In this document: positions 20,067 through 39,604 of the stretch, piece after piece
How the letters are laid out: every line of letters starts with the position of its first letter
Numbering within the stretch: the stretch's first letter is position 1
NCBI RefSeq assembly: GCF_009664085.1
Contig: NZ_CP039268.1
Span: 1,101,501-1,165,500, forward strand
Length of the DNA: 64,000 bases
From: Thermochromatium tepidum ATCC 43061
Lineage (GTDB): Bacteria > Pseudomonadota > Gammaproteobacteria > Chromatiales > Chromatiaceae
Reading direction: 5' to 3'
Position numbers and translations under genes: made by a program
The notes under the pieces: generated by a model
What the model saw: only the letters and a program-made list of their open reading frames with translations
Databases searched by the model: none
What the model was told of the DNA's origin: nothing

Positions 20067-21114
20067 TCTGACATGGGGGGAATGCGGCACGACGGCGCGC
20101 ACCTTCAAGAGCGCGTTGATCTGGGTGGTGGCGGATTCCGCTCAGCCCATGCGGGAAGAGGCAAGGAAGCTGCTCGCCTGGCAGGCGATTGCCGACGAGG
20201 CGGAGGATCTCAAGCTCGATGAGGCGCAGAAGAAGCAGCTCGCCGAAAACATCCACAAGGCCAGACGTGACCTGAAGGAGTCCATCTGGCGCGCCTACAA
20301 ACACCTGTTCCTGCTGGCCAAGGACAACACGGTAAAGAGGGTCGATCTCGGGCTCGTCCATTCCAGCGCGGCGGATTCCCCCATCTCCAACATCCTCAAC
20401 CGGCTGTCCGCTGACGGCGACATCGAGAAGGGGGTGAGCCCGAACTTTCTGGTGCGGAACTGGCCCCCCGCTTTCAAGGAGTGGGCGACGAAATCGGTGC
20501 GCGATGCATTCTATGCCTCGCCCGTGTTCCCGTGCCTATTGAACGCGGAGACGATCAAGGAAACCATCGCGCGCGGCGTCGAGGCTGGCATCCTGGCCTA
20601 TGTCGGGAAAGGCCCCGCAGGCGCGTATCAGCCGTTCGCCTTCAAGCAGAGCATCGACCCGGCAGACATCGAATTCTCCGATGACATGTTCATCATCACG
20701 GCTGAAGTGGCACGGGCCTACCTGGAGGCTCAAACCACACCACCGCCGGCGGGGGTTCCCGTGCAAAGAGGCGGCACGGGAGTTGGAACAGGGACAGGTG
20801 GAGGTGCGGAACCAAGTGGTACACCAATTGAACCTCAACCGGCGCCGACCCCGCCTGTTCCCGGGCCAGCGAAGATTGCCGGCATCCGATGGTCTGGCGA
20901 AGTGCCGCCACAGAAATGGATGAACTTCTACACCAAGGTGCTCTCACGCTTTGCGGCCACGCCGGGCTTGAAGCTGACCATCGCGGTCGAGGTGAGCCCC
21001 CCGGATGGACTCCCGCAGCAGTCACTGGAGGAGACGCAGAATGCCCTGCGGGAACTGGGACTGGATGACCGGGTGACGGAGAAGTCGTCGCCCGGAAACA
21101 ATGCCGGTCGGTGG
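20067..21114 (+). pseudogene. DUF499-family ATPase gene, 3' fragment
   Basis: About 349 codons correspond to the C-terminal part of DUF499 ATP-binding proteins found in DUF1156-methyltransferase/helicase defence loci. They include TFKSALIWVVADSAQPMREE, the central VRNWPPAFKEWATKSVRDAF, a Gly/Pro/Thr-rich linker, and the closing domain (WSGEVPPQKWMNFYTKVLSR). The 5' part with the Walker motifs was lost at the IS3 element. The 3' end is interrupted by IS66 at codon NNAGRW; across the 18.5-kb insert the frame would finish with TNHG and stop (39590-39604). It is non-functional as it stands. Confidence 0.75.
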
Positions 21115-22662
21115 GTAACTGTTCAGGTTCCCCATAAAAGAGTCTCTGATCCGGGTTTAAGAACGGGAAGGACAGCTGACAATAAGCGGCATGGAAAGAC
21201 TGCCCGATCTTGCTGACCTGACGCACGCGGAGAAAGACGCACTCATTCATCTGCTGTGGGATTGGGTCACCGCGTTGCGCCAGGAAGTCGTCCGGCTGAC
21301 AGCGGAAGTGACCCGGCTGCAGGGGGAAGTCGCCCATCTGCGCGGGCAGATGGCGAAGAACAGCCGCAACTCGAGCATTCCATCCTCGGCCGAAGGCTTG
21401 AAGAAGACGAAGTCGATGCGCAAGCAGGGAAGCCGACCGCCTGGCGGTCAGCCGGGTCATTCCGGTTCGACGCTCAAGCAAGTGGCGCAGCCCGATCACG
21501 TGGTGGATCATCCACTGCCCGAGGTATGCGACGTCTGCGGCGAATCGCTCACGGGGCAGGCCACGACCGAAATCCGCCAGGTCTTCGATCTGCCGCCGGT
21601 GACAATGGAAGTGACCGAGCACCGGATTCACGCGCTGCGCTGCACCTGCGGCAAACTGCACCGCAGCGAATTCCCGCCCGAGGTCACGGCCCCGGTTCAA
21701 TATGGCCCCGGCGTCAAGGCGCAGGCGGTCTATCTGACGCAGCACCACATGCTGCCCGTGGCGCGCACCGCCAACGTCCTTGCAGACCTGTATGGTGTGC
21801 CGATCTCGACCGGCACGGTTCAGGCCATGATCGGGGAGGCGAGTGAGCGGTTGGCTCCGACGGTCGCGCGGATCGCGGATGCGGTCGCTCAGGCGGATGT
21901 CGCGGGCGCCGACGAGTCTGGCTTTCGCGTGGCAGGCAAGCTCAACTGGCTGCACACCGCGGTGACCGACACCCTGACCTGGCTGGGTCTGCATGCCAAG
22001 CGCGGCAAGGCGGCGTTTGAGGACTTCGGTCTGCTGTATCGGCTCAAGGGAACGCTGGTTCATGACGGCTGGGCCTCGTATCGGGAACTGACCTGCACCC
22101 ATGCGCTGTGCAACGCCCATCATCTGCGTGAATTGACCTTCGTCCATGAGGAATGCGGACAAGCGTGGGCCAAGCGCATGATCGATTTGTTGGTCTGTGC
22201 CCACCATGAAACGGTGGCCGCCCATGGCCAGCCGCTGACGGCCCAGCGCATCCAGGCGATCCGCACTCACTACGAGGCGATCCTTGCTGAAGCGGCCGCC
22301 GCCAATCCAGCCAAACCCGCCAGCGGCAGACGCGGGCGCACGGCGCAAAGCGTGCCGTTCAATCTCTACCGACGATTGCGTGATCATGCCGACGATGTCC
22401 TGCGCTTCACGACCGATCCACGCGTTCCGTTCAGTAACAACCTTGCCGAACAAGCGATCCGCATGCCCAAGGTCAAGCACAAGATCGCCGGTTGCTTCCG
22501 CACCACCGAAGGCGCTTTAGCCTTCTGCACCATCCGCTCCTACCTCGCCACCCTGCAGAAGCAGCACTTCGACCTCTTCCAATCCCTCATCCAGGTGTTC
22601 AAGGGCAACACCCCTCAGCCAAATTTCTCGGGGTAGCTTCCCCGGGGCACCTGAACAGTTAC
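21115..22662 (+). mobile_element. IS66-family insertion sequence, copy 1 (left end of the composite unit)
   Basis: The ends begin GTAACTGTTCAGG and are matched by CCTGAACAGTTAC at 22662, imperfect inverted repeats of about 19 bp with the GTAA terminus usual for IS66. There is a single tnpC-like transposase gene and no tnpA/tnpB, as in the ISBst12-like subgroup. The 8 bp outside the left end (21107-21114, GTCGGTGG) do not recur at its own right end but do recur outside the right end of copy 2. Confidence 0.92.
21191..22636 (+). CDS. IS66-family transposase (TnpC-like), copy 1
   Basis: The 481-residue transposase has an N-terminal coiled coil (LRQEVVRLTAEVTRLQGEVA), the conserved MAKNSRNSSIPSS and GGQPGHSG segments, and a zinc-finger region (VCDVCGES, then RCTCGKLH). 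The DDE core follows (GADESGFRV, VHDGWASYREL, then SNNLAEQAIRMPKVKHKIAG). It looks intact. It differs from copy 2 at about six residues towards the C-terminus, so the two are not a brand-new duplicate. Confidence 0.95.
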   Translation: MERLPDLADLTHAEKDALIHLLWDWVTALRQEVVRLTAEVTRLQGEVAHLRGQMAKNSRNSSIPSSAEGLKKTKSMRKQGSRPPGGQPGHSGSTLKQVAQPDHVVDHPLPEVCDVCGESLTGQATTEIRQVFDLPPVTMEVTEHRIHALRCTCGKLHRSEFPPEVTAPVQYGPGVKAQAVYLTQHHMLPVARTANVLADLYGVPISTGTVQAMIGEASERLAPTVARIADAVAQADVAGADESGFRVAGKLNWLHTAVTDTLTWLGLHAKRGKAAFEDFGLLYRLKGTLVHDGWASYRELTCTHALCNAHHLRELTFVHEECGQAWAKRMIDLLVCAHHETVAAHGQPLTAQRIQAIRTHYEAILAEAAAANPAKPASGRRGRTAQSVPFNLYRRLRDHADDVLRFTTDPRVPFSNNLAEQAIRMPKVKHKIAGCFRTTEGALAFCTIRSYLATLQKQHFDLFQSLIQVFKGNTPQPNFSG

Positions 22663-23873
22663 GGGGCCTCAAATACAGGGCCGCGAACCGAAAGCAGGAG
22701 ACTGTCCGGCTTGGTGACTATCCAGCCTATTCCCTGGCCGAGGCTCGGAGCTGGCGGGACGACTGCAAAGCCTTGGTCAAACGCTGTCTCTCGCCCATGG
22801 CCCTCAAGCGAGGCGACCCGATTCCGGCAGAGGTTTCGCCAGCAGTCAAGGAAATGGCCGAGGCATTCGTCTCGAAGTGGTGCCTGAAAGCGAAAGAGGC
22901 TGCCAAAGCCAAGGAGGACGCGGCGCACGAGGCCGACACCGTCAGAGCCTTCGCCTGGCGTTGGCACGAGGAAATCGCCGCGCCGGCCAACAGCAACCCA
23001 CGCAACATCGAGCGCATTCTGAAAAAGGACGTGATCCCGGTCATTGGCGAAAAACGCCTTGCCGAAGTCACGCCCGATGACATTCTGACGGTCACCGACC
23101 GCATCAAACGCCGCGGTGCCGACCAGATGGCGCTACAGACCCGCAACGTGTTGAAGCGGATGTTTGCCTACGCCATTGCCCGGCAAAAGACCCAGTTCAA
23201 CCCGGCCGCCGCCATCGAGGCAAGATTCATCGCCCAGGCGAGAAGTCGGGATGTCGCATTGACGGCGGAGGAAATCGGCAGGCTGATGCGGGCCATTTAC
23301 CGCTCGAGCATGAAACGCTCACACAAACTGGCCCTGCACCTATTGATTCTCTGCATGGTGCGCAAATCCGAGCTGATCGAAGCGCGCTGGGAGGAAGTCG
23401 ATTTCGAGCGCGCTGAATGGGCGATTCCCGCCGAGCGCATGAAAAAGGACAGGTCGCATCTGGTGCCCCTTTCGCGTCAGGCGCTGGCGATGTTCGAAGA
23501 ACTGCGCGATCTGGCCAGCGGTTCGGAATGGGTTTTCCCCAGTCGCGGCGATTTACATCGACCGATCGCCAAGAGCACTTTGAACGTCGCGGTGCGGGCG
23601 CTGGACGTCGACGTGCGCGACTTCGTCCTCCACGACTTCCGGCGCACGGCCTCCACCCATCTCCACGAGCAAGGCTTCAATTCCGACTGGATCGAAAAAG
23701 CCCTGGCGCACGAGCAAAAAGGGGTGCGGGGCGTCTACAACCGCGCCGAATACCTTGCCCAACGCCGCCAGATGCTGCAATGGTGGGCGGACTACGTCGA
23801 TGGCCAGATCAGGGAAGACGCTGGCCGCGTCATCATCGGGCCATTTGGAAAGGCGTTCCAGTCGGCGGCTTGA
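22663..23873 (+). pseudogene. P4-type tyrosine integrase, 5' end removed by IS66
   Basis: Reading from the IS66 junction, the frame opens inside the N-terminal DUF4102-type arm-binding domain (ETVRLGDYPAYSLAEARSWR) without a start, so roughly 40-50 residues are missing. The core-binding and catalytic domains are complete: first arginine in MVRKSELIEARW, HxxR in LHDFRRTASTHL, histidine in LAHEQKGVRG, and tyrosine in YNRAEYLAQRR. An internal ATG at 22773 could give a 366-residue protein lacking the arm domain. Such integrases normally drive tRNA-site islands; it suggests the unit came from one. Confidence 0.85.
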
Positions 23874-23882
23874 ACCTTCGAG

Positions 23883-24977: not shown

Positions 24978-24980
24978 TGC

Positions 24981-27095
24981 CTAACTCCTCTTCCTGACGT
25001 AGGCAGTGTTGCGGGTCGGATGGGGGTATTGCTCCCACCCCTGGTCCTGCGGGCCATAGAAATGGTCAAGCGCCTTCTTCACAAGCCGGAAGGCTAAGGT
25101 ATCCCTGTCATCCAGATGCTCCGGCAGTTGCTTGAGGAAGAACGCCTTGATCGAGCCCCATGCGGCTCCATCGGTAGATTCGATTTTTGCGATCAGCTTG
25201 GCATCAACTCGCAGGGCTTCGATCGCCTTCTGCTCGATGTTCGCCATGACATCCACCGGCTCAGCTTCTTCGACCTCCGTCTCTTCAGGAAACAAAGCGC
25301 CTGCGCCATCAGCTTCAGGAATGCGGGCTGTCGTCGCGATCTGCCTCATCCCGGAGAAGATGCTACGTAGTGTTTGGGCGTAGGTGTGACCGGCTGGCTG
25401 GTTATAGTCATGGTCCCGCATCGAGAACATCTTCTCGAACGACAGTGCGCGGAGGCTGACTGGATAAGGCTTGCCTCCCACCGAGCTCCAAAACACACCC
25501 TGGCCAGGGATGGGCTCGTTAAGGAGCGAGCTCAACAAGTCGTCACTGAAATGGGCGTTGGCTCGTTTCAGGGACATGAGATCCGCCGCCGACAACAGGT
25601 GGAAGATGAACCAGTTGTCGCCCTGACTGAGGATCTCGACAGGAATGCTGCCCGGTTGCTGAGTGATCAGCAGCGCGCCCAGATCGTACTTACGACCTTC
25701 CTTCACCCAGGCGATGTAGGGCTCGGCAGCCGGTGCATTTTCGTTCAGCACCGATTGGGCCTCTTCGACGACCGCGATCGTCGGGATCGTCTTTGGATCG
25801 GCCGCGGTGAATTCTTGCTGGTTTCGATCGAAGATCCGGCGCAGGATCAGGCCCGAGAGAACCAGCGACTGGCCGCCGCGCATCTGGGAGACATCAATGA
25901 CGCACAGCTTCCCCTCGGAGAGCGCGTGAACCAGCATGTCCATGAGCTGGCTGCTCTTGTCATGCAGCATCTTCACGATTGTCGTCATATTGCTTCTGGC
26001 AGCGACCGCCTCTACCTCTTGCTTTTGCGGATCGAGATCAAGCAAGCGGCAGATGTCGTCAAGCGGTGTGGTGTTGCCGTTGGCGTCGATCAGATTGACC
26101 AACGACTCCCACCGGTCTTGCGGAAGCCCGCGCAGCTTCCGAACGTTCTGTTGCTCCTGGCGTTCTGGTCCGAGTGCGATCGAAATTACATCGCCTGGAC
26201 GTAGGCGGCGAATATCCAGCTTGATGCCGCCGGCCACGAACGACTGGTAGAAAGGACTCGGATTTTTCCTGTCGGTGAAGACGACGACCTTGTCCTCCAG
26301 AGCCGGGACATCGCATAGCCCCGGGCGGCCCTTGTCGTCAGGCCAGAAATACTCGCCATCCGGATCAAAGATCACCGTGCCGACGGGAGCCTGCTTGCCG
26401 GCGCGCTTGGTGACGAAGGGCGTCGTCTCGTAGAGCTTCGAGAAGAGCAGCTTGTTGAGATTGGATTTACCGAAGCCCGCTCTGGCAAAGATAAAGCTGC
26501 GGCGAGACACCAGTGACTCGATCGGGAAGCGGACCAATACCTCGGGACCGACCACCTGCATCCATTCTTGCGCTTGGAGTGATTTGCTGCCCGCGGCGTA
26601 GATATACTCGCCGAAGGCCAGATGGCCGATGGGTGCTCCATCGATGTTGTGACCGGCGATCTCTCGCAGCACTTCGTCATTCGGAAAGGCTACCTTGCTG
26701 CCAACATGAGGGAGCCGGCGATGCGAGGGGACGAAGGTGAGCCCCTTGCCGTTCTTGCGCAACACACCCAACACACGGATGTTGACCCGGTACTTGAGGT
26801 ACTGCTCGCGTAGGTCTTCGGGGATGGGCCGATCCTCACGAACGGCACGGAGATTGAACTCCTCGCCGGAGCCGAAAGACAGCTTGCCTTCCGAGGAGAA
26901 GGATGCGATCCGGCCTAAGACTGCTTCATCGGGCGTCTCCAGTTGCACGAGGAGGAACTGGCCGTGCATGGGGATGTTCTGGAACTCGTTCCTGTACGGC
27001 AACACCAGGTCGGCGTGGAACTCAAGTCCTCCTTGTTGAAAGCCCCGGAAGATGCCGACGACTTTTTCCTTGGGAAAGAGTTGAATCTCTGCCAT
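24981..27095 (-). CDS. HerA-like hexameric ATPase
   Basis: The 704-residue protein has an N-terminal HAS-barrel-like region (GQFLLVQLETPDEAVLGRIA), Walker A in FARAGFGKSNLNKLLFSK near residue 210, and Walker B in TIAVVEEAQSVL near residue 445. The typical HerA/FtsK-like C-terminal segment LITQQPGSIPVEILSQGDNW follows. HerA proteins pump DNA and feed it to the nuclease NurA; bacterial HerA homologues also power several anti-phage systems. It lies 12 bp after nurA and 3 bp before the methyltransferase, a tight operon. Confidence 0.88.
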   Translation of the reverse strand: MAEIQLFPKEKVVGIFRGFQQGGLEFHADLVLPYRNEFQNIPMHGQFLLVQLETPDEAVLGRIASFSSEGKLSFGSGEEFNLRAVREDRPIPEDLREQYLKYRVNIRVLGVLRKNGKGLTFVPSHRRLPHVGSKVAFPNDEVLREIAGHNIDGAPIGHLAFGEYIYAAGSKSLQAQEWMQVVGPEVLVRFPIESLVSRRSFIFARAGFGKSNLNKLLFSKLYETTPFVTKRAGKQAPVGTVIFDPDGEYFWPDDKGRPGLCDVPALEDKVVVFTDRKNPSPFYQSFVAGGIKLDIRRLRPGDVISIALGPERQEQQNVRKLRGLPQDRWESLVNLIDANGNTTPLDDICRLLDLDPQKQEVEAVAARSNMTTIVKMLHDKSSQLMDMLVHALSEGKLCVIDVSQMRGGQSLVLSGLILRRIFDRNQQEFTAADPKTIPTIAVVEEAQSVLNENAPAAEPYIAWVKEGRKYDLGALLITQQPGSIPVEILSQGDNWFIFHLLSAADLMSLKRANAHFSDDLLSSLLNEPIPGQGVFWSSVGGKPYPVSLRALSFEKMFSMRDHDYNQPAGHTYAQTLRSIFSGMRQIATTARIPEADGAGALFPEETEVEEAEPVDVMANIEQKAIEALRVDAKLIAKIESTDGAAWGSIKAFFLKQLPEHLDDRDTLAFRLVKKALDHFYGPQDQGWEQYPHPTRNTAYVRKRS

Positions 27096-27107
27096 ACCGT
27101 ATCCCCT

Positions 27108-28250
27108 TTATTCATACCGGCGCAGCGCCGGGTCGGCGTCCTGTAGCTGGAACGCGTCCAAGATCCCTGCGTCACCACCGAGGCTCGATCGCACGCCTTC
27201 GTAAATGAAGTCCTGCAAGATGTCGAAATCGAAATCGACCAGTGCCGCGTTTTCATGTGCTTTCTGCAGGCAACGCGGGTAATGCGGCACCGGAAAACCG
27301 TTGATCGCATCGGCGAGCATCGAGCCGAGGATGGTTTGCGCCTCGCCGACTTGCGGAACAAAGATGTCCACCGGCCACACCGGGTCGCGGCGGTGTGAGC
27401 CGAACTTCACCAGGAACATCTTGCCGCCGACGAACTTATTGATCTCTCCACCCTCACCGGCGCGGTCATCGCCCCGCGCGAATTCCGACCACTCGTAGGC
27501 CTTCTCCTCAACCTCGCGCGGCACCTCCACGTAGGCCGGGTAGTCGGTCTGAAGGACGCCTTCCAGAGCCATCGCCAAGCGGTACCGGGATAGCACTTTG
27601 CTGTGCTTGGCCACGCCAGCTAGATACACCCGACGACGGTTCTTGCTCCACTGCGCGTCGATTCGACCCTTCATGCCATGGAGCAGACGCTGGAACAGAT
27701 CCTTGGCGAAGACCTTGCTTCGCAACAAGCCGTCGCAAACGATCAAGGTATCGGTGCCGAAATCCTTCTTCAGGATCGCGAACAGGATCGCCCACTCGAC
27801 CAGCTCCCGGTAGACGTGCACCCAGCTGGGTGAAATCGGCTTCCCCTTGTCGGTCGGTCGAATCATGTGGGAGAGCGCTGGCAGGCTGTTCACTCCCAGG
27901 AAGGCCATCATCTCGCCGAGCGCCGTGCGAGGACTTCCATCACGTTCGAACTGGCGCTTGTCGAGCTTGTCGATGGGGGTCGTGGGCGAGATGGCCTCCA
28001 GGCAGTATTCGTTGTTGCTGCTGTCTACCACCCGCACAAGCTGGATCAGGAAGGGATCAAACCGGAGCTGGTTGTTGCCGCCATCGGTGCCGACTAGCGA
28101 GATCGATGTCGTGGCCCGCGGTTGAATACGGCGCGTGACGCTCTTCAGAGGGCGGATCTCTTCCCGCAGCGCGTCCAGCACCCCTTGATCGGTGCCGATG
28201 CAGTCCGCGATGGCTTCCTTCAGTTGGGCCTGGCTTACCGGGTCGATCAT
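27108..28250 (-). CDS. NurA-family nuclease
   Basis: The 380-residue protein has the NurA-domain features: the metal-binding aspartate in ISLVGTDGGNNQLRF near residue 55, a central FGTDTLIVCDGLLRSKVFAK with a second conserved aspartate, and a C-terminal GSMLADAINGFPVPHYPRCL. NurA is a 5'-3' exonuclease/endonuclease working with HerA. The ATG at 28250 was chosen as the first to fit the family. A duplicated fragment of this 5' end lies at 17331-17374. It is transcribed divergently from the HTH gene at 28355. Confidence 0.8.
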   Translation of the reverse strand: MIDPVSQAQLKEAIADCIGTDQGVLDALREEIRPLKSVTRRIQPRATTSISLVGTDGGNNQLRFDPFLIQLVRVVDSSNNEYCLEAISPTTPIDKLDKRQFERDGSPRTALGEMMAFLGVNSLPALSHMIRPTDKGKPISPSWVHVYRELVEWAILFAILKKDFGTDTLIVCDGLLRSKVFAKDLFQRLLHGMKGRIDAQWSKNRRRVYLAGVAKHSKVLSRYRLAMALEGVLQTDYPAYVEVPREVEEKAYEWSEFARGDDRAGEGGEINKFVGGKMFLVKFGSHRRDPVWPVDIFVPQVGEAQTILGSMLADAINGFPVPHYPRCLQKAHENAALVDFDFDILQDFIYEGVRSSLGGDAGILDAFQLQDADPALRRYE

Positions 28251-28354
28251 CCCCTCTCCCGCCGCTTGGCTATTCAATGATGCACAAGTTTGCCGTATCC
28301 TTGCCAAGATTACCATCATCACCGGCCGCAGTCTTGTTGCCGGGCGAGGAAGCG

Positions 28355-28558
28355 ATGAAAGACGACGCGGCAGAGATATTCACCCTCGATGAAGTGGCGG
28401 CCTACCTCAAGGTGGGCAAACGCACGGTGTATCGCCTGGCGGCGGCGAAGAAGATTCCCGCCTTCAAAGTCGGTGGGACATGGCGATTCCAGCGCCAGGA
28501 AATCGACCAGTGGATCACAGAGCAGACCGAGAGGGGAAGGCAGGGCCGAGAGGGCTAA
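28355..28558 (+). CDS. Excisionase-type helix-turn-helix protein, copy 2
   Basis: This 67-residue HTH_17-type protein is nearly identical to copy 1 at 17669 up to WRFxRQEID, then differs in its tail (QWITEQTERGRQGREG). It shares the same upstream region and ribosome binding site. It heads the hsdM-hsdS-higBA-hsdR operon, 44 bp before hsdM, and is divergent from nurA-herA-methyltransferase, so it could regulate both (inference). No catalytic function is expected. Confidence 0.8.
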   Translation: MKDDAAEIFTLDEVAAYLKVGKRTVYRLAAAKKIPAFKVGGTWRFQRQEIDQWITEQTERGRQGREG

Positions 28559-30975: not shown

Positions 30976-32342
30976 TGGCGGCGGCGAATCCCTATCCGAG
31001 CTATCGCGCATCGGGGTTGCCGTGGGTTCCCCAATTGCCGGAGGGCTGGCAGGTACTGCGCAATGGCCGGCTCTTTAGCCATCGCGTGGAAACTGGCTTC
31101 CCCGACTTGCCGATTTTGGAGGTATCGCTGCGCACGGGTGTTCGCGTCAGGGACATGGAGAACCTGAAGCGCAAGCAGGTGATGAGCCAGAAGGAGAAGT
31201 ACAAGCGCGCGGCCAAGGGTGACATCGCCTACAACATGATGCGCATGTGGCAGGGCGCCGTTGGCTCGGCTCCGGTCGATGGGCTGGTCAGCCCGGCCTA
31301 TGTCGTAGTGAAGCCCTATGACGAGGCCAACAGCCACTACTACAGCTACCTGTTCCGCACGGCGGCGTACATGCAGGAGGTCAACAAGTACTCGCGCGGC
31401 ATCGTGGCCGACCGCAACCGGCTCTATTGGGAGTCGTTCAAACAGATGCCCTCGCTCGTGCCTCCCCGCGCCGAGCAAGACCAGATCGTCGCCTACCTGC
31501 GCGCGCAGGACGCGCACATCGCCCGCTTCATCAAGGCCAAGCGCGAACTCATCAAGCTGCTGACCGAGCAGAAACTGCGCATCATCGACCAGGCCGTCAC
31601 GCGCGGCCTGGACCCCAACGTCCGGTTCAAGCCGTCCGGTATCGACTGGCTGGGCGAGGTGCCGGAGCATTGGGAGGTTTCTAAAGTCAAGCTGCTGGCC
31701 GACTACATCAACGGCTTCCCGTTCAAGCCTGCGGAATGGGGCGCGAAAGGTCGTCCAATTATTCGAATTCAGAATCTCACAAAGGAACACGCGCCGTTCA
31801 ACTACTATGAGGGTGCGATTCCTGAACGCAACCATGTCAAAAATGGCGATATCCTGCTTTCTTGGTCAGCTTCGCTCGGCGTATTCGTATGGAATCGTGG
31901 CGATGCATGGCTGAACCAGCACATTTTCAAGGTCGTTCCAGACCCTACGCGAATTACTCGTGGGTACTTCGTTTGGTTGGCCCGGTGGTTCTTGAACCAC
32001 ATGGAGGCCGAGGCGCACGGCTCTACCATGCAACACATTACTAAACCGAAATTCGGTTCGTTTCCTGTTCCTTTACCCTCGCTCGACGAGCAGGCGGAGA
32101 TAGAAGCGCACATCCAGCGTGAAACGCAAGATATTGACCTTGTCATCACCCGCACCGAAGACGAAATCAAACTGATCCGCGAATACCGCGACCGCCTGAT
32201 TGCCGATGTGGTCACGGGCCAAGTGGACGTGCGCGACTGGCAGCCCGGCCATGACGACGTGGTGAGCGACGAAGAACTGGCCGCCCTGGGCGACGACGAG
32301 GCTAACCTGAGCGAGGACGAGCCCGGCGATGGCGGTGAGTGA
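30975..32342 (+). CDS. hsdS: Type I restriction-modification specificity subunit HsdS
   Basis: HsdS recognises the bipartite target. The 455-residue protein contains two target-recognition domains, each opened by the usual motif: SGLPWVPQLPEGWQVLRNGR near residue 10 and SGIDWLGEVPEHWEVSKVKL near residue 217. They are separated by conserved helices (LPPRAEQDQIVAYLRAQDAH; second copy PSLDEQAEIEAHIQRETQDI). Start and hsdM stop overlap as TGATG, coupling translation. Base composition in the second domain (about 31700-32060) is visibly more AT-rich than its neighbours, as expected for a swapped specificity domain. Confidence 0.95.
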   Translation: MAAANPYPSYRASGLPWVPQLPEGWQVLRNGRLFSHRVETGFPDLPILEVSLRTGVRVRDMENLKRKQVMSQKEKYKRAAKGDIAYNMMRMWQGAVGSAPVDGLVSPAYVVVKPYDEANSHYYSYLFRTAAYMQEVNKYSRGIVADRNRLYWESFKQMPSLVPPRAEQDQIVAYLRAQDAHIARFIKAKRELIKLLTEQKLRIIDQAVTRGLDPNVRFKPSGIDWLGEVPEHWEVSKVKLLADYINGFPFKPAEWGAKGRPIIRIQNLTKEHAPFNYYEGAIPERNHVKNGDILLSWSASLGVFVWNRGDAWLNQHIFKVVPDPTRITRGYFVWLARWFLNHMEAEAHGSTMQHITKPKFGSFPVPLPSLDEQAEIEAHIQRETQDIDLVITRTEDEIKLIREYRDRLIADVVTGQVDVRDWQPGHDDVVSDEELAALGDDEANLSEDEPGDGGE

Positions 32343-32450: not shown

Positions 32451-32780
32451 TTGGAGATCCGCTTCCGGGACAAAAAGGTGCGCCTGCTGTGCGAAAGCCG
32501 GGATGCCGCTGTGAAAAAGCTGGGCGATGCCTGCGCCCGCAAGCTGAGGGCCCGGCTGGATGACCTGGAGCACGCCGCAAGTGTGGCCGATCTGGTGGCG
32601 GGCAACCCCCATCCCCTGACGGGCGACCGGACTGGCGAGTATGCGGTCAGCCTGGCGGGCGGCTGGCGGTTGACGTTCTCGCCCGCCAATGACCCGGTGC
32701 CACGCCATGCCGACGGCGGCATCAACTGGCGGGCTGTGACCATTGTTTGTATCGAATTCATTGGGGACTACCATGACTGA
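32451..32780 (+). CDS. higB: HigB-family toxin
   Basis: The 109-residue RelE/HigB-superfamily mRNA interferase starts at a TTG. The pattern MEIRFRDKKVRLLCESRDAA, then LRARLDDLEHAASVADL, then YAVSLAGGWRLTFSPAND and a C-terminal VTIVCIEFIGDYH is typical of plasmid-maintenance killer proteins. GGAG about eight bases before the TTG, and the family-like first residues, support that start; no ATG lies in frame nearby. It precedes and overlaps its antitoxin by 8 bp, the toxin-first order characteristic of higBA. Confidence 0.85.
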   Translation: MEIRFRDKKVRLLCESRDAAVKKLGDACARKLRARLDDLEHAASVADLVAGNPHPLTGDRTGEYAVSLAGGWRLTFSPANDPVPRHADGGINWRAVTIVCIEFIGDYHD

Positions 32781-33927
32781 TCTGGATGCACCGTTCGCGC
32801 CGGACTGGGTTTCCCCACCCGGCGACACCATCGCCGATGTGCTGGAGGAGCGCGGCTGGACGCAAGCCGAGCTTGCGCGGCGGCTGGGGTACACCGAAAA
32901 GCATGTGAGCCAGCTCATCAACGGCAAGGCCGCCATCACCGAAGACACGGCCTCGAGGCTGGAGCGTGTCCTCGGCAGCACGGCGGGCTTTTGGTTGCGC
33001 AAGGAAGCGACGTATCGCGAGCGGCTGGAACGCCAGCAGTTCGCCCAGCGCTGCGCGGGGTGGGCGGACTGGCTGGATCGGCTGCCCATCAAGGAGCTGA
33101 TGGCGCAAGGCGCCGTCCCCAAAGTGCGTTTGGTGGAGAAGAACAAGCCGGCGCTGGTCGAGGCCTGTTTGCGCTTTTTCGGTGTGGCTTCTCCTGACGA
33201 GTGGGAAAGCGTTTACGTCAGCGACTTGAAGGCGCAGTACCGCCGCAGCCGTGCCGAGCAAAGCGACCTGGCGGCCATTGCAACCTGGCTGCGCCTGGGT
33301 GAAAAGCGGGCCGAGGGCTGGGATGCCCCCAAGTTCGACCGCGCGCGTTTCGAAAAGGCCCTGGGGGAGATTCGCGTCCTGACAACGCAGCCGCCAGAGG
33401 TGTTCGAACCGCAAATGAAGCGGCTGCTGCGGGATGCGGGGGTGACGCTGGCCTTGGTGCCGGCCATACCCCGGGCGCACGTCTCGGGGGTGGCCCGGTG
33501 GTTGTCGCCGTCGCGGCCGCTGATCCAGCTGTCCCTCTACGGCAAAACCAACGACCGCTTCTGGTTCACGTTTTTCCACGAGGCGGCGCACATCCTCTTG
33601 CATGGAACGTCGGCGCAAGACCGCAAAGTCGTGTTTCTTGACGATCCCGACGGCGGCGAGAGCGAAAACAGGCTTGAACACGAAGCCAATCGCTGGGCGG
33701 CGGATTTTTTGATCCCGCCAGAGCATGCAGGAGGGCTGCCGTTGCTTGAGACAAAAGCGTCGGTGCTCGCTTTCGCAAAGCGGCTCTCCATCCATCCAGG
33801 CATCGTCGTCGGTCGGTTGCAACACGATGGCTTGATCCAGCCCGCATGGATGAATGACTTGAAGGTCAGTTTCCGCTGGGCAGACCCACATCCGGATGCG
33901 AAGAGGACCACCCATGAGCGCGACTGA
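32773..33927 (+). CDS. higA: HigA-type antitoxin with ImmA/IrrE metallopeptidase domain
   Basis: The 384-residue protein joins a HigA/XRE DNA-binding domain (IADVLEERGWTQAELARRLG, then EKHVSQLINGKAAITEDTA) to a C-terminal ImmA/IrrE-type zinc peptidase domain with the HExxH-like FFHEAAHILLHG near residue 275 and HEANRWAADFLIP. The peptidase part may respond to stress and alter repression, as in other XRE-ImmA proteins (inference). The start overlaps higB and the end overlaps hsdR by 14 bp, so it is fully embedded in the hsd operon. Confidence 0.88.
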   Translation: MTDLDAPFAPDWVSPPGDTIADVLEERGWTQAELARRLGYTEKHVSQLINGKAAITEDTASRLERVLGSTAGFWLRKEATYRERLERQQFAQRCAGWADWLDRLPIKELMAQGAVPKVRLVEKNKPALVEACLRFFGVASPDEWESVYVSDLKAQYRRSRAEQSDLAAIATWLRLGEKRAEGWDAPKFDRARFEKALGEIRVLTTQPPEVFEPQMKRLLRDAGVTLALVPAIPRAHVSGVARWLSPSRPLIQLSLYGKTNDRFWFTFFHEAAHILLHGTSAQDRKVVFLDDPDGGESENRLEHEANRWAADFLIPPEHAGGLPLLETKASVLAFAKRLSIHPGIVVGRLQHDGLIQPAWMNDLKVSFRWADPHPDAKRTTHERD

Positions 33928-36919
33928 CACCAGCGAAAAAGGCCTCGAAGCGCTGATCGTGCGCGACCTGGTCGCCAGCGGCTACGTGCAAGGCTATGCC
34001 ACGGACTACCACCGCGACGTGGCGCTGGACGTGACGCAGTTGCTCGCCTTCCTCCGGGCAACGCAGCCGAAGGTTGTCGAGACGCTGAACCTGGACGCCG
34101 ACGGCATCCCGCGCACCCAGTTTCTACACAGGCTGCAAGGTGAAATCACCAAGCGCGGCGTGGTGGACTGTTTGCGCCGTGGCGTGAGCCACGGGCCGGT
34201 GCACGTGGACCTCTACAAGCTACTGCCCACGCCGGGCAATGCCGCCGCAGCGGAGGTCTTCGGCAAGAACATCTTCAGCGTCACCCGGCAGGTTCGCTAC
34301 AGCAACGACGAGTCGCAGCGCGCGCTGGACATGGTGATCTTCATCAACGGCCTGCCGGTGCTCACCTTCGAGCTGAAGAACTCGCTGACCAAGCAGACCG
34401 TGGCGGACGCCGTGGTGCAATACCAGACCGACCGCAACCCGGGCGAGCTGCTGTTCCAGCTTGGCCGCTGCATCGCCCACATGGCGGCGGACGACGCCGA
34501 GGTGCGCTTTTGCACCCACCTGACCGGCAAGACCTCCTGGTTCCTGCCGTTCAACCAGGGCTGGAACAGCGGGGCCGGCAATCCGCCGAATCCGCATGGC
34601 CTGAAGACCGACTACCTGTGGAAGCAGGTGCTGGTGAAGGAGTCGCTGGCCAACATCATCGAGAACTACGCACAGGTCGTCGAGGAGGAAGCGGAAGATG
34701 CCAACGGCCGCAGGCGCAAGACACGCAAGCAGATCTTCCCCCGCTACCACCAGCTTCGCACGGTGCGCGCCCTGCTGCGCCGCAGCCGCGCCGATGGCGT
34801 CGGCAAGCGCTACCTGATCCAGCATTCGGCCGGCAGCGGCAAGAGCAACACCATTGCCTGGCTGGCCCACCAGTTGGTGGAACTGAAGACGGAGGCGGGG
34901 CAGGCGCAGTTCGATTCGGTCATCGTCATCACCGACCGCCGCGCGCTGGACACGCAGATCGCCCGCACGATCAAGGCCTACGACCATGTGGCGTCGATCT
35001 ACGGTCATTCGGAGAGCGCCGAGGAGCTGCGCACCTTCCTGCGCCGGGGCAAGAAGATCATCGTCACGACGGTGCAGAAGTTCCCGTTCATCCTGGACGA
35101 GTTGGGCGACCTCGGCGACAAGAAGTTCGCCCTGCTGATCGACGAGGCGCACTCCAGCCAGGGCGGCAAGACGACCGCCAAGATGCATCTGGCGCTGTCC
35201 GGGCACGCTGCCGAAGGCGGCGAGGAGGAAGAGGAGGAGTCGGTCGAGGACAAGGTCAACGCCCTGATCGAGTCGCGCAAGATGCTGGCCAACGCCAGCT
35301 ACTACGCTTTCACGGCCACGCCCAAGACTCGGACGCTCGAGCTTTTCGGCGAGCGCCAGGTCGTTGGCGACACGGTTCAGTTCCGCTCGCCCGAGGAGCT
35401 GACCTACACGACCAAGCAAGCGATCCAGGAGGGCTTCATTCTTGACGTGATTGCCAACTACACGCCGGTGTCGAGGTTTTATCACGTCGCCAAGACGGTC
35501 GAGCACGACCCGGAGGTGGACAAGGCCAAGGCGCTGAAGAAGATCCGGCGCTATGTGGAGTCCCACGACAAGGCGATCCGCCGCAAGGCCGAGATCATGG
35601 TCGATCACTTTGTCGAGCAGGTGATCGACGCCAAGAAGATCGGCGGCCAAGCGCGCGCGATGATCGTCTGCAACGGCATCGCACGGGCCATCGACTACTT
35701 CCGCGAGGTGTCGGACTACCTCGCGGAGATCAAAAGCCCGTATAAGGCCATCGTGGCGTACTCCGGCGACTTCGAGATCGGCGGATCGAAGAAGACCGAG
35801 GCCGATCTCAACGGATTCCCGAGCAAGGACATCCCAGCCAAGCTCAAGCAGGAGCCGTATCGCTTCCTGATCGTTGCCAACAAGTTCGTCACGGGCTTCG
35901 ACGAGCCGCTGCTACACACGATGTACGTGGACAAGCCGCTGGCGGGCGTGCTGGCGGTGCAGACGCTCTCACGGCTGAACCGGGCGCACCCGAAGAAGGC
36001 CGACACGTTCGTGCTCGACTTCGCCGACAACGCGCAGGCCGTGAAGGCGGCGTTCCAGGAGTACTACCGCGCCACCATCCAGGAGGGGGAGACTGACCCT
36101 AACAAGCTCCACGACCTGAAGAGCGATCTGGACGCACAGCAGGTCTACAGCTGGCAGCAGGTGGAAGACCTCGTCGCGCAGTACCTTGGCGGCGCTGAGC
36201 GTGACCAGCTCGACCCGATCCTCGACGCATGCGTCGCCGAGTACGTCGAGAAGCTCTCTGAGGATGACCAAGTGAAGTTCAAGGGCAAGGCCAAGGCCTT
36301 CGTCCGCAGCTACGGCTTCCTTGCAGCCATCCTCCCCTACGGTCACCCGGCATGGGAGAAGCTGTCGATCTTCCTGAACTTCCTGATTCCGAAGCTGCCC
36401 GCCCCCAAGGAAGAGGATCTGTCCAAAGGCGTGCTGGAGGCCATCGACATGGACAGCTACCGGGCGCAGGCCCAGGCCTCCATGCGGATGGCGATGGACG
36501 ACGCCGATGCGTTCGTCGAGCCGCCGCCTCCCGGAGGGGGTGGCGGCGCTGGCGAGCCGGAGCTGGACAGGCTGTCGAACATCATCAAGCAGTTCAACGA
36601 CCTGTTCGGCAACATCAAGTGGCATGACGCCGACAAGATTCGCAAGGTCGTCACCGAAGAGATTCCGGCGCGCGTCGCACAGGACAAGGCCTACCAGAAC
36701 GCGCAGGCCAACTCGGGCAAGCAGAACGCGAGGCTGGAGCACGACAAGGCGCTCAACCGCGTGGTGCTCGAGCTGTTGGACGATCACACGGAGCTGTTCA
36801 AGCAGTTTTCCGACAACCCGAGCTTCCGGCGCTGGCTTACGGATACGGTATTCGAAGTGACCTACCGTCCGGGCGCGATGCCGCCGAAGGCGCAACCGCA
36901 GCTTGGCGCTCGTGTTTGA
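33914..36919 (+). CDS. hsdR: Type I restriction endonuclease subunit HsdR
   Basis: HsdR gives the DNA-translocating, cleaving subunit. The 1001-residue protein has the N-terminal nuclease motif (LDMVIFINGLPVLTFELKNS, with D and ExK), Walker A HSAGSGKSNTIAWLAHQL near residue 305, DEAH-type LIDEAHSSQGG, and TATPKT. A C-terminal helical domain interrupted by a proline/glycine linker (EPPPPGGGGGAGEP) follows. The start at 33914 lies inside the end of higA. It appears complete and, with hsdM and hsdS, makes a plausible active type I system. Confidence 0.95.
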   Translation: MSATDTSEKGLEALIVRDLVASGYVQGYATDYHRDVALDVTQLLAFLRATQPKVVETLNLDADGIPRTQFLHRLQGEITKRGVVDCLRRGVSHGPVHVDLYKLLPTPGNAAAAEVFGKNIFSVTRQVRYSNDESQRALDMVIFINGLPVLTFELKNSLTKQTVADAVVQYQTDRNPGELLFQLGRCIAHMAADDAEVRFCTHLTGKTSWFLPFNQGWNSGAGNPPNPHGLKTDYLWKQVLVKESLANIIENYAQVVEEEAEDANGRRRKTRKQIFPRYHQLRTVRALLRRSRADGVGKRYLIQHSAGSGKSNTIAWLAHQLVELKTEAGQAQFDSVIVITDRRALDTQIARTIKAYDHVASIYGHSESAEELRTFLRRGKKIIVTTVQKFPFILDELGDLGDKKFALLIDEAHSSQGGKTTAKMHLALSGHAAEGGEEEEEESVEDKVNALIESRKMLANASYYAFTATPKTRTLELFGERQVVGDTVQFRSPEELTYTTKQAIQEGFILDVIANYTPVSRFYHVAKTVEHDPEVDKAKALKKIRRYVESHDKAIRRKAEIMVDHFVEQVIDAKKIGGQARAMIVCNGIARAIDYFREVSDYLAEIKSPYKAIVAYSGDFEIGGSKKTEADLNGFPSKDIPAKLKQEPYRFLIVANKFVTGFDEPLLHTMYVDKPLAGVLAVQTLSRLNRAHPKKADTFVLDFADNAQAVKAAFQEYYRATIQEGETDPNKLHDLKSDLDAQQVYSWQQVEDLVAQYLGGAERDQLDPILDACVAEYVEKLSEDDQVKFKGKAKAFVRSYGFLAAILPYGHPAWEKLSIFLNFLIPKLPAPKEEDLSKGVLEAIDMDSYRAQAQASMRMAMDDADAFVEPPPPGGGGGAGEPELDRLSNIIKQFNDLFGNIKWHDADKIRKVVTEEIPARVAQDKAYQNAQANSGKQNARLEHDKALNRVVLELLDDHTELFKQFSDNPSFRRWLTDTVFEVTYRPGAMPPKAQPQLGARV

Positions 36920-37040
36920 GTCAGTAGCGCCCATAGTGCGCTGACGGTATTCCCGGATGACACCTTCCGCTTTCTCAGCTGCACGGCAAACACAGTCGGT
37001 ACGCTGGAAGGACACAGCCTGTCGGACTGCGTCCTTTCCG
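36920..37040. other. Short intergenic stretch after hsdR
   Basis: No gene or clear terminator was recognised between the hsdR stop and the 3' end of the minus-strand pseudogene. Confidence 0.4.
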
Positions 37041-37415
37041 TCAAGATCCGGCGCAGCCGCGGTCTGGATTTGCACCCGATGCGCGCGTTTTCGTCCTCGC
37101 CAGCTTCGCCGGCCGCCCGCCCTTGCCCTGACGCTGCCAAGGGCCGCGAAGATGCGGCTCCCAGTCCGGCCAGCGGCCCAGCGCGGAAGCGAGGGCGCGC
37201 GCCGTGCGCCAGTAGTCATAGCGGCTGCTCGGCGAAAGATTACTCGCCCAACGTTCCAGCGCTTAGCGCAAATGCTTGACTCGCCATTGGGGAGGCTCCC
37301 GGATGCCGAAGCGCGCCTCGATCGCCCGGGCAATGCGCCCGGCGCGCTCGATGTGACCGCGCAGCGAGGCCTTCGCGCCGGGCAGGGCGCGCTCGAGAAG
37401 AATCGCAACGCCCAT
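37041..37415 (-). pseudogene. Island-associated conserved protein with in-frame stop
   Basis: From an ATG at 37415 the frame reads MGVAILLERALPGAKASLRG, continues to RVKHLR, meets TAA at 37264-37266, and resumes in the same frame with ALERWASNLSPSSRYDYWRT and GRWPDWEPHLRGPWQRQG to a TGA at 37041. The strength of the sequence on both sides marks a single nonsense change in a once-complete gene of 124 residues. Such proteins are found next to Integrase_1-type recombinases on genomic islands (recall). Function is unknown. Confidence 0.6.
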
Positions 37416-37422
37416 GCCCGCC

Positions 37423-38032
37423 TCAGCCGCGATAGTGACTGCCGATATAGGCCGCCAGCACGTCGAGCCGGTTGTGGCCCAGCTCCTGGGCAAGCTCCAG
37501 CCCCAGCTCCTTACTCAGGGTCTCGACGGCCTCGGCCTCCTCCTCGGTGAGATCGTCGGACGGCAGACACTGCGCGACCACGGGCGCGGGGCGGTCGGCG
37601 AGCTCCTGGTAGCGGTCGCACGCCCATGCGGCACGCAGGTCGTGGTAGCCCTCGATGCCATGGCGGTGCAGGATGGCGCGTGCCTTGTGGATCTCCCCGT
37701 CATTGACGAAATCGTCGTAGGTTTCACTCGGCTTGAGCAGGTTGTTCCCGCAGCCCAGCTCGCGGCGGATGGTATCGGCATTTTCGAGCGCGCAGTCGGC
37801 CGCGCCATCGACCGGCACCCAGCGGGCCACCTCCTTGCCGCGTCCGCCCTTCGTGCCTTCGCGTACGTCGATGGCGCCTCTTTCGTCCCGTTCGCGCAGC
37901 CAGCGCGGGATGTCGCCAAGCACGGCCTCGCGCAGGCGCAGACCCAGACTGCGCGCGAGCTGCGCGACGGCAGACGCGCGCAACAGGCCGGCGTCTTCGA
38001 GCGCCTGGATCGCTGACTGGAAGTGATCCCAG
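37423..38032 (-). pseudogene. Integrase_1-type recombinase, C-terminal domain (5' end removed by IS66)
   Basis: The frame enters from the IS66 boundary (DHFQSAIQALEDAGLLRASA) and continues with VAQLARSLGLRLREAVLGDI, TKGGRGKEVARWVPV, GYHDLRAAWACDRYQEL and ELGHNRLDVLAAYIGSH. These are the R, HxxR, GH and Y positions of an Integrase_1 (PF12835-type) tyrosine recombinase. The N-terminal SAM-like domain is missing. Like the P4-type integrase at the other end of the unit, it was broken by an IS66 copy, so neither end-recombinase is whole. Confidence 0.8.
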
Positions 38033-39581
38033 GTAACTGTTCAGGTTCCCCATAAAAGAGTCTCTGATCCGGGTTTAAGAACGGGAAGGACAGCTGACAA
38101 TAGGCGGCATGGAAAGACTGCCCGATCTTGCTGACCTGACGCACGCGGAGAAAGACGCACTCATTCATCTGCTGTGGGATTGGGTCACCGCGTTGCGCCA
38201 GGAAGTCGTCCGGCTGACAGCGGAAGTGACCCGGCTGCAGGGGGAAGTCGCCCATCTGCGCGGGCAGATGGCGAAGAACAGCCGCAACTCGAGCATTCCA
38301 TCCTCGGCCGAAGGCTTGAAGAAGACGAAGTCGATGCGCAAGCAGGGAAGCCGACCGCCTGGCGGTCAGCCGGGTCATTCCGGTTCGACGCTCAAGCAAG
38401 TGGCGCAGCCCGATCACGTGGTGGATCATCCACTGCCCGAGGTATGCGACGTCTGCGGCGAATCGCTCACGGGGCAGGCCACGACCGAAATCCGCCAGGT
38501 CTTCGATCTGCCGCCGGTGACAATGGAAGTGACCGAGCACCGGATTCACGCGCTGCGCTGCACCTGCGGCAAACTGCACCGCAGCGAATTCCCGCCCGAG
38601 GTCACGGCCCCGGTTCAATATGGCCCCGGCGTCAAGGCGCAGGCGGTCTATCTGACGCAGCACCACATGCTGCCCGTGGCGCGCACCGCCAACGTCCTTG
38701 CAGACCTGTATGGTGTGCCGATCTCGACCGGCACGGTTCAGGCCATGATCGGGGAGGCGAGTGAGCGGTTGGCTCCGACGGTCGCGCGGATCGCGGATGC
38801 GGTCGCTCAGGCGGATGTCGCGGGCGCCGACGAGTCTGGCTTTCGCGTGGCAGGCAAGCTCAACTGGCTGCACACCGCGGTGACCGACACCCTGACCTGG
38901 CTGGGTCTGCATGCCAAGCGCGGCAAGGCGGCGTTTGAGGACTTCGGTCTGCTGTATCGGCTCAAGGGAACGCTGGTTCATGACGGCTGGGCCTCGTATC
39001 GGGAACTGACCTGCACCCATGCGCTGTGCAACGCCCATCATCTGCGTGAATTGACCTTCGTCCATGAGGAATGCGGACAAGCGTGGGCCAAGCGCATGAT
39101 CGATTTGTTGGTCTCTGCCCACCATGAAACGGTGGCCGCCCATGGCCAGCCGCTGACGGCTCTGCGCATCCAGGCGATCCGCACTCACTACGAGGCGATC
39201 CTTGCTGAAGCGGCCGCCGCCAATCCAGAGAAACCCGCCAGCGGCAGACGCGGGCGCACGGCGCAAAGCGTGCCGTTCAATCTCTACCGACGATTGCGTG
39301 ATCATGCCGACGATGTCCTGCGCTTCACGACCGATCCACGCGTTCCGTTCAGTAACAACCTTGCCGAACAAGCGATCCGCATGCCCAAGGTCAAGCACAA
39401 GATCGCCGGTTGCTTCCGCACCACCGAAGGCGCACAGGCCTTCTGCATCATCCGCTCCTACCTCGCCACCCTGCAGAAGCAGCACTTCGACCTCTTCCAA
39501 TCCCTCATCCAAGTGTTCAAGGGCAACACCCCTCAGCCGAATTTCTCGGGGTAGCTTCCCCGGGGGCGCCTGAACAGTTAC
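38033..39581 (+). mobile_element. IS66-family insertion sequence, copy 2 (right end of the composite unit)
   Basis: This is the same element as at 21115-22662, same orientation, about 99% identical, with ends GTAACTGTTCAGG and CCTGAACAGTTAC. Its left flank (GATCCCAG) and right flank (GTCGGTGG) differ, but the right flank equals the 8 bp outside the left end of copy 1. The span 21115-39581 therefore behaves as one 18,467-bp inserted unit with its own 8-bp target duplication. Confidence 0.92.
38109..39554 (+). CDS. IS66-family transposase (TnpC-like), copy 2
   Basis: This 481-residue protein matches copy 1 except for a handful of C-terminal changes (LLVSAHHE for LLVCAHHE, TALRIQ for TAQRIQ, NPEKPAS for NPAKPAS, and GAQAFCIIRS for GALAFCTIRS). 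Coiled coil, zinc-finger cysteines and the DDE segments are all present. Both copies could supply transposase in trans for the whole unit. Confidence 0.95.
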   Translation: MERLPDLADLTHAEKDALIHLLWDWVTALRQEVVRLTAEVTRLQGEVAHLRGQMAKNSRNSSIPSSAEGLKKTKSMRKQGSRPPGGQPGHSGSTLKQVAQPDHVVDHPLPEVCDVCGESLTGQATTEIRQVFDLPPVTMEVTEHRIHALRCTCGKLHRSEFPPEVTAPVQYGPGVKAQAVYLTQHHMLPVARTANVLADLYGVPISTGTVQAMIGEASERLAPTVARIADAVAQADVAGADESGFRVAGKLNWLHTAVTDTLTWLGLHAKRGKAAFEDFGLLYRLKGTLVHDGWASYRELTCTHALCNAHHLRELTFVHEECGQAWAKRMIDLLVSAHHETVAAHGQPLTALRIQAIRTHYEAILAEAAAANPEKPASGRRGRTAQSVPFNLYRRLRDHADDVLRFTTDPRVPFSNNLAEQAIRMPKVKHKIAGCFRTTEGAQAFCIIRSYLATLQKQHFDLFQSLIQVFKGNTPQPNFSG

Positions 39582-39604
39582 GTCGGTGGACAAATCACGG
39601 TTGA
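39582..39604 (+). other. Right target duplication and last codons of the DUF499 gene
   Basis: GTCGGTGG at 39582-39589 repeats the 8 bp before copy 1 (21107-21114). Reading on from there in the DUF499 frame gives TNHG and a TGA, a plausible original C-terminus. This supports insertion of the entire 18.5-kb unit into that gene. Confidence 0.8.

What the first reader, a model, noticed from the sequence alone, without database searches (positions are those of the whole stretch)
21107..39589. 18.5-kb IS66-bounded composite unit carrying two defence modules, with an outer 8-bp target duplication
Two same-orientation IS66 copies (21115-22662 and 38033-39581) have unrelated inner flanks but share GTCGGTGG immediately outside the unit (21107-21114 and 39582-39589). 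IS66 elements make 8-bp duplications. Across the unit the interrupted DUF499 frame continues to a stop (NNAGRW then TNHG). So the whole block, with methyltransferase-HerA-NurA, HTH, HsdMS-HigBA-HsdR and two broken integrases, appears to have entered as one piece, by composite transposition or by recombination of a circle into a resident IS66. The two IS copies differ slightly, so it is not brand new.
Basis: partly seen in the sequence, partly recalled or inferred. Interest (0 to 1): 0.82.

Follow-up and report, generated by a model that had tools for sequence, protein, structure and literature searches.

The report
IS66-bounded anti-phage defence block
A 15-kb stretch with two anti-phage gene modules, flanked by two copies of a jumping gene that cut it out of an older island, appears to have entered this chromosome as one piece, and half of it belongs to a constant arm that other bacteria join to quite different defence systems at one fixed seam.

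Summary
Two IS66 copies (21115-22662, 38033-39581; 15 differences) enclose 15,370 bp, with GTCGGTGG exactly outside both ends and unrelated inner flanks. Three of the four other full copies in this genome have their own 8-bp duplication; chance of such a match is about 5e-5 to 2e-4.

Entry as one IS66-bounded piece is supported. The 13-kb cargo is collinear, without IS66, in a genome of another family (G182). Both IS copies abut truncated integrase genes. The left edge is pinned: a Thiobacillus contig has the intact integrase beside mnmE, with GGGGCCTC where our sequence resumes.

The gene beside the left IS is HmaC; its two close relatives have their stop 27 bases before the IS, so the 'continued frame' is not evidence. 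No empty site was found. Composite transposition and recombination into a resident IS66 cannot be separated.

The newer point: MTase-HerA-NurA-HTH is a constant arm (HerA-NurA closest to TdpA-TdpB) joined, at one seam in the 3' end of the HTH gene, to type I R-M, Hma, BREX or UvrD-helicase genes. The arm's tree rejects a single origin for type I. This window holds two arm copies with different cargo.

The parts
17330..17375 (-). 46-bp stub of the 5' end of a NurA gene (relic of a second constant arm)
   Evidence: 93.5% match to 28217-28262
17580..17884 (+). resident HTH gene and leader (second copy of the arm's regulator end)
   Evidence: 94.8% match over 252 bp to 28266-28517; HTH_17 on the block copy
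17885..18567 (+). HmaA-like helicase, N-terminal part only
   Evidence: PADLOC HmaA 8.4e-49 on 17794-18567
18555..20066 (-). IS3-like element that replaces the middle of the Hma genes; ends read from sequence, approximate
   Evidence: ORFs; inverted ends ATAGTTGTCGCCT seen in the sequence printed
20101..21084 (+). HmaC (DUF499-like) C-terminal part; normal gene end at about 21084
   Evidence: PADLOC HmaC 1.4e-13; relatives stop at the codon aligned to 21085-21087
21107..21114 (.). left copy of the 8-bp target duplication GTCGGTGG
21115..22662 (+). IS66 copy, left (IS-L), one 481-aa transposase ORF
22663..23873 (+). P4-type tyrosine integrase without its N-terminal part; begins at the IS edge with GGGGCCTC
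   Evidence: Phage_integrase 3.1e-28, Arm-DNA-bind_3 from profile position 36; 86% to the intact integrase beside mnmE in L047
23883..24977 (-). DNA methyltransferase, 364 aa
   Evidence: N6_N4_Mtase 2e-14
24981..27095 (-). HerA/TdpA-like hexameric translocase, 704 aa
   Evidence: DUF87 8.8e-19; TdpA 5e-22
27108..28250 (-). NurA/TdpB-like nuclease, 380 aa
   Evidence: profile hit TdpB 1.3e-5; fold hits TdpB 8.4e-12 and S. solfataricus NurA 8.5e-7
28354..28558 (+). HTH_17 protein, divergent from NurA; its 3' end (about 28517-28527) is the seam where cargo changes between loci
   Evidence: alignments
28603..30975 (+). HsdM
   Evidence: PADLOC MTase_I 9.1e-260
30972..32342 (+). HsdS
   Evidence: PADLOC Specificity_I 1.3e-110
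32451..32780 (+). HigB-like toxin gene by position; no family hit
   Evidence: position before HigA; no hit
32770..33927 (+). HigA-type antitoxin with an IrrE-like domain
   Evidence: TIGR02607 2.1e-14 above cut-off; HTH_3 and Peptidase_M78; PADLOC PD-Lambda-2_B 9.5e-33
33914..36919 (+). HsdR
   Evidence: PADLOC REase_I 1.2e-46; TIGR00348 3.5e-60
37423..38032 (-). second integrase (Integrase_1), N-terminal part missing, cut at the IS-R edge
   Evidence: PF12835 3.3e-10; the homologue in Halomonas has 134 codons before the matched part
38033..39581 (+). IS66 copy, right (IS-R), one 481-aa transposase ORF
39582..39589 (.). right copy of the 8-bp target duplication GTCGGTGG

Best explanation
The 18,467-bp unit is an IS66 composite transposon in structure. 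Inferred history: an integrative island with a P4-type integrase (of the kind found beside mnmE) carried MTase-HerA-NurA / HTH / HsdM-HsdS-HigBA-HsdR. One IS66 copy landed inside that integrase gene and another inside a second integrase gene on the far side. The outermost IS ends were then used together, so that both IS copies and everything between moved as one piece and made an 8-bp duplication just behind the HmaC gene of an already decayed Hma defence island between ilvD and argF. Shown: the duplication, the two cut integrases, the cargo as one unit elsewhere without IS66, and the insertion of the whole region between ilvD and argF. Inferred: that transposase and not RecA made the last join. 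What the cargo does: two complete-looking systems, a type I R-M with an embedded toxin-antitoxin pair, and a methylase plus HerA-NurA (TdpAB-like) translocase-nuclease that most likely degrades DNA lacking the methylase's mark; both functions are inferred from families.
For: Exact 8-bp outer repeat, and 3 of 4 other full copies with their own 8-bp repeat. IS66 transposase family. Inner edges inside integrase genes: left resumes at GGGGCCTC, which stands at the same place in the intact L047 integrase; right lacks about 130 N-terminal codons. Collinear cargo at 88-92% DNA identity with no IS66 in the 39 kb fetched from G182; hub plus type I also in Cupriavidus cauae and Pandoraea nosoerga. ilvD and argF are 0.5-1.4 kb apart in 5 of the 6 same-genus stretches fetched, 23 kb here.
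Against: No donor and no empty site found: this IS has no full-length match in 37 relatives other than the own genome or in 368 other genomes of the class (E<=1e-50), nor a near match in the plasmid collection. The IS copies are mosaic: sites 1129/1131 and 1197/1198 show all four combinations over the six copies, so IS66 copies have recombined here, which keeps the RecA route open. GTCGGTGG is not a rare word in the window.
Confidence: 0.58

Rival explanations
1. A circle carrying the block and one IS66 copy (excised from an IS66-flanked block elsewhere) recombined by RecA into a single IS66 that already sat behind HmaC with its own duplication.
For: It gives the same anatomy, and the mosaic IS copies show recombination between IS66 copies in this genome.
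Against: Nothing found against it; no circular form or single-IS state could be looked for. The two IS copies differ at only one site in their first 1082 bases, so a crossover inside them leaves no readable trace.
Confidence: 0.3
2. The two IS66 copies inserted separately into one older island and the outer 8-bp match is chance, or the right and left halves of two independent copies were left by deletions.
For: Copy L003 without duplication and the 37-bp remnant show that IS66 copies are also reshaped by other events; GTCGGTGG is found 6 times in the window.
Against: A match at exactly these two places has a chance of about 5e-5 to 2e-4. The inner flanks are integrase genes of another kind of island and not the neighbours of HmaC.
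Confidence: 0.08
3. The block came through the repeated HTH leader (homologous recombination between the two arm copies) and the IS66 copies were added later.
For: Two arm copies 94.8% alike over 252 bp lie 10.7 kb apart, and cargo exchange at this seam happened in other lineages.
Against: Recombination at the HTH would give breakpoints at the HTH; the block's outer limits are the IS ends with a target duplication.
Confidence: 0.04

Closest known systems
IS-bounded composite transposons (Tn-type units between two IS copies), IS66 family
   Same: Two like-oriented complete IS copies, outer 8-bp duplication, passenger genes between.
   Different: Transposition not shown, no second location found; passengers are an already linked pair of defence modules rather than a resistance gene. 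That IS66 makes 8-bp duplications and that such composites exist is recalled; the paper search returned listings only.
TdpAB (TdpA HerA-like hexamer with TdpB NurA-like nuclease)
   Same: Best solved relatives of both proteins: TdpA 5e-22, TdpB 8.4e-12 by fold and 1.3e-5 by profile.
   Different: Only about 20% identity to TdpB; a DNA methylase gene stands where Tdp has its phosphorothioate gene (the latter recalled; two paper searches found no Tdp paper).
Type I R-M with a toxin-antitoxin pair inside, under a small regulator (RptR, EPEC: DarTG2 inside type I R-M)
   Same: Small regulator upstream, toxin-antitoxin genes between HsdS and HsdR; RptR is also found upstream of non-RM modules (passages of PMC12255303).
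   Different: Regulator here is HTH_17 and has a fixed methylase-HerA-NurA arm on its other side; the TA pair is HigA-type. 'NurA' and 'HerA' do not occur in that paper.
HerA/FtsK capture systems and BREX-related capture (BRC) systems
   Same: HerA/FtsK translocases placed with other defence genes (passages of PMC10853773 and PMC12839542).
   Different: No NurA in PMC10853773 (0 occurrences); the BRC system shares HerA with BREX parts in one system, while here a whole separate arm is joined to alternative systems. BREX paper seen in passages only.
Hma (PADLOC HmaA/HmaC)
   Same: Resident broken genes and L050 cargo match it.
   Different: Resident copy is a relic: the IS3-like element took its middle.

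Membership tests
IS66 family insertion sequence | IS66-type DDE transposase | tested here: met
   PF03050 2.3e-48 and 6.6e-49
IS66 family insertion sequence | 8-bp target duplication | tested here: met
   3 of 4 other full copies; L003 without
IS66 family insertion sequence | terminal inverted repeats beginning GTAA (start recalled) | tested here: met
   GTAACTGTTCAGG at both ends of both copies
composite transposon | two IS copies with outer duplication and no inner one | tested here: met
composite transposon | same unit at another site, or an empty site | tested here: inconclusive
   none found; collections are partial
composite transposon | movement shown | not testable with these tools
   needs culture work
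TdpAB-like HerA-NurA pair | TdpB/NurA fold | tested here: met
   (mean pLDDT 86.1)
TdpAB-like HerA-NurA pair | HerA-type ATPase next to it | tested here: met
   DUF87; NurA next to HerA in 82 of 82 loci collected through HerA
TdpAB (strict) | phosphorothioate partner TdpC (recalled) | not tested
   no such search was made; neighbour is a DNA methylase, so not filed as Tdp
Type I R-M | HsdM, HsdS, HsdR | tested here: met
Hma (resident) | complete HmaA, HmaB, HmaC | tested here: not met
   only the start of HmaA and the end of HmaC remain around an IS3-like element

The most novel reading that the evidence does not exclude
MTase-HerA-NurA with its divergent HTH gene is a docking arm: a portable regulator-plus-nuclease unit to which whole, unrelated defence systems (type I R-M, Hma, BREX type III-like, UvrD-helicase plus methylase, and one unidentified) are attached and exchanged at one seam in the 3' end of the HTH gene, so that one HTH switch drives the arm in one direction and whatever cargo is docked in the other. 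IS66 then makes such an assembled pair independent of its island's integrase.
Probability: 0.4. Interest if true: 0.7.

Novelty: new variant of a known kind. Interest (0 to 1): 0.5.

Why it matters
It shows how an assembled pair of defence systems can leave its site-specific island after the integrase genes are broken. It also gives a concrete, testable case of modular defence assembly: one constant methylase-HerA-NurA-HTH arm, several alternative cargoes, a seam located to within about ten bases, and a tree in which arm and cargo disagree. If the HTH protein controls both sides, one regulator would switch unrelated defence systems in many bacteria.

Tried and rejected
DUF499 frame as evidence: rejected. 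Empty site in same-genus genomes: argF was found in 7 of 7, stretches fetched for 6 of 7, ilvD beside argF in 5 of these 6 (the G007 contig ends first), but neither 39582-40140 nor 17017-17330 aligns with any of the relatives' ilvD-argF stretches tried (one 28-bp hit in a G366 stretch, no more). G005 as empty site: its HmaC decays before the place. Own mnmE as the place the block left: mnmE has no integrase within 1.5 kb and the L047 integrase finds only the window copy in the own genome. IS66 block on plasmids: IS no match; the block matched 31 records, none over 80% covered, by type I genes in the 20 listed; HerA no match at 1e-50. IS sequence differences as a clock: rejected, copies are mosaic. 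Pfam, PADLOC and NCBIfam for NurA: no hit, settled by fold. PADLOC for the L046 cargo start: no hit. tRNA as attachment site: none in the window or in six loci. Structural second look by VIA: library not on hand.

Full report
OBSERVATION. Two IS66 copies in the same orientation at 21115-22662 and 38033-39581 differ at 15 positions, each with an intact 481-aa IS66 transposase. They enclose 15,370 bp. GTCGGTGG stands exactly outside both ends; the inner neighbours are GGGGCCTC and GATCCCAG. The genome (one contig, 2,958,290 bases) has six full copies and a 37-bp remnant. Of the four other full copies, L002, L004 and L005 have perfect 8-bp duplications and L003 has none. Over all 36 left/right pairs of flanks the only matches are these three and the outer pair of the unit. 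Random 8-mer pairs in the window match 97 times in 2,000,000, and positions at the same spacing 8 times in 45,517. The word itself is not rare (6 in the window, 3.55 expected).

THE FRAME ARGUMENT FAILS. The gene left of the unit is HmaC by PADLOC (1.4e-13), broken upstream by an IS3-like element that also cut HmaA. Its close relatives are G005 (86%) and G366 (83%). In both, the sequence ends ...DDRV[T/A]EK and a stop aligned to 21085-21087, 27 bases before the IS and before the 8-bp target. G005 also has an earlier stop, so it is itself decayed. In the window the frame happens to run on over 10 more codons; that it meets a stop 4 codons after the join carries no weight. So the IS sits just behind HmaC rather than in a conserved part of it.

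THE SITE. In five of the six same-genus stretches fetched (G001, G002, G004, G005, G006) ilvD and argF lie about 0.5 to 1.4 kb apart; in the window they are 23 kb apart. The whole of about 17.0-40.1 kb is thus extra. None of the genus relatives shares the sequence next to the unit's right edge, so no empty site could be shown.

THE CARGO PRE-DATES THE IS66 COPIES. In G182, of the same class but another family, MTase-HerA-NurA-HTH-HsdM-HsdS-HigBA-HsdR is collinear with the block at 88.6 to 91.7% over the matching pieces; the 39 kb fetched have no IS66 match. HsdS matches only in part there, as expected if the target differs. Cupriavidus cauae and Pandoraea nosoerga share a stretch 99.97% alike over 20,663 bp with arm and HsdM-S-R but no HigBA between HsdS and HsdR. 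In Thiobacillus UBA2597 (L047) the arm is followed by an intact integrase, 86% to the one beside our left IS, which lies behind the 3' end of a gene that I recognise as mnmE from its sequence (no family search of it; the own-genome homologue is 58% identical). That mnmE 3' ends are integration sites of some islands is recalled. The intact integrase reads GGGGCCTC exactly where the window's integrase begins after IS-L. This is what an IS inserted in that gene looks like from one side: GGGGCCTC would be the inner copy of the first insertion's duplication. The integrase's first part is nowhere in the own genome and the own mnmE has no integrase beside it. On the right, IS-R abuts an Integrase_1 gene whose Halomonas homologue has 134 codons ahead of the matched part.

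HOW IT ENTERED. These facts fit composite transposition: two outer ends used together, target duplicated, inner duplications broken up. They equally fit a circle that recombined into a resident IS66. The six copies are mosaic (four combinations at two pairs of sites), so copies do recombine; the first 1082 bases of the two copies differ at one site only, too little to see a crossover. I favour transposition at 0.58 against 0.30.

WHAT THE CARGO IS. HerA: DUF87, nearest solved protein TdpA, 5e-22. 'NurA': no Pfam, PADLOC or NCBIfam hit, but a profile of 26 rows finds TdpB at 1.3e-5, and its model (mean pLDDT 86.1) finds TdpB at 8.4e-12 and Sulfolobus NurA at 8.5e-7. The methylase is N6/N4 type. 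A scan for HerA gave 146 relatives, best 80 kept. With two more from the genome search, 82 of 82 loci have NurA and 65 of 82 a relative of the methylase (some contigs end early, and in some the methylase lies elsewhere or on the other strand). The type I genes are complete in frame and a HigA-type antitoxin lies between HsdS and HsdR.

THE ARM AND ITS SEAM. In 9 of 82 loci a relative of our HTH gene stands divergently next to NurA (L044, L046-L050, L053, L054, L075). L051 has a cut trace at its contig edge and L122 a 38% relative. The cargo beyond the HTH is type I R-M (window, G182, L053/L054), BREX (L075: BrxF, BrxC, PglX, BrxH; L048: a BrxC-like ORF by its printed start, not scanned, with a HEC-01A protein behind it), a UvrD/GajB-like helicase plus methylase (L049), Hma (L050, which matches the window's resident HTH-HmaA start at 91% over 381 bp), and one unidentified (L046). 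L047's contig ends at the HTH. Aligned, the arms match up to the last part of the HTH gene and then split by cargo type, at window 28517-28527. The window has this twice: the resident copy (46-bp NurA stub, HTH, broken Hma) and the block copy (type I), 94.8% alike over 252 bp.

DO ARM AND CARGO SHARE ONE HISTORY? A tree of HerA+NurA DNA of 15 loci rejects the three type I arms as one clade (p-AU 2.0e-8; 2 changes forced by starred branches). Our block's arm lies with G182, L046, L047 and the BREX arms, while L053's lies elsewhere, although HsdR and HsdM of L053 are closer to ours (93%, 91%) than its HerA is (88%). The two BREX arms are also rejected as a clade (p-AU 7.9e-62), because L046, with another cargo, pairs with L075 at 100/100; against the labelled groups alone BREX needs one change only. 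Limits: 6 of 12 inner branches are open, one outgroup row is long, three have odd base make-up, and label shuffles are as low as observed in 208 of 500 for type I. So cargo exchange is supported for type I and for L046/L075, from few loci.

NOVELTY. IS-bounded composites, type I R-M with an inner TA pair, Hma and BREX are known kinds. HerA/FtsK capture and BREX-related capture systems are described in PMC10853773 and PMC12839542 (passages seen), a small regulator upstream of type I R-M and of other modules in PMC12255303 (passages seen). Paper searches with NurA and HerA gave listings in which I saw no description of this arm or seam; subscription journals are largely not held. I therefore call it a new variant of a known kind.

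Noticed in passing
window 17376-17579: About 204 bp inserted between the NurA stub and the resident HTH leader, absent from the block copy, with imperfect inverted ends; looks like a small non-autonomous element.
   Followed up: partly
window 18555-20066: IS3-like element with inverted ends ATAGTTGTCGCCT that stands between the start of HmaA and the end of HmaC; the middle of the Hma genes is gone.
   Followed up: partly
L003 (G000:C1:826516-828064) and L007 (G000:C1:2770053-2770089): A full IS66 copy without target duplication and a 37-bp IS66 end remnant elsewhere in the genome.
   Followed up: no
L053 and L054: 99.97% identical over 20,663 bp between records of Cupriavidus cauae and Pandoraea nosoerga: a recently shared mobile stretch carrying the arm and type I R-M.
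   Followed up: partly
L039 and L042 (G006:C2): A 176-kb second replicon holds a methylase 86% like ours with the last 75 residues of the same integrase, without HerA-NurA in the stretch fetched, and a second fragment of the same pair in the other orientation.
   Followed up: no
window 3701-4924 with 10399-11111, and 12039-12402 with 13286-13649: Long direct repeats at 96-99% identity outside the unit.
   Followed up: no
window 39703-39790: 88-bp repeat also at 4767-4854 (91%) and 10954-11041 (79%), right beside the unit.
   Followed up: no
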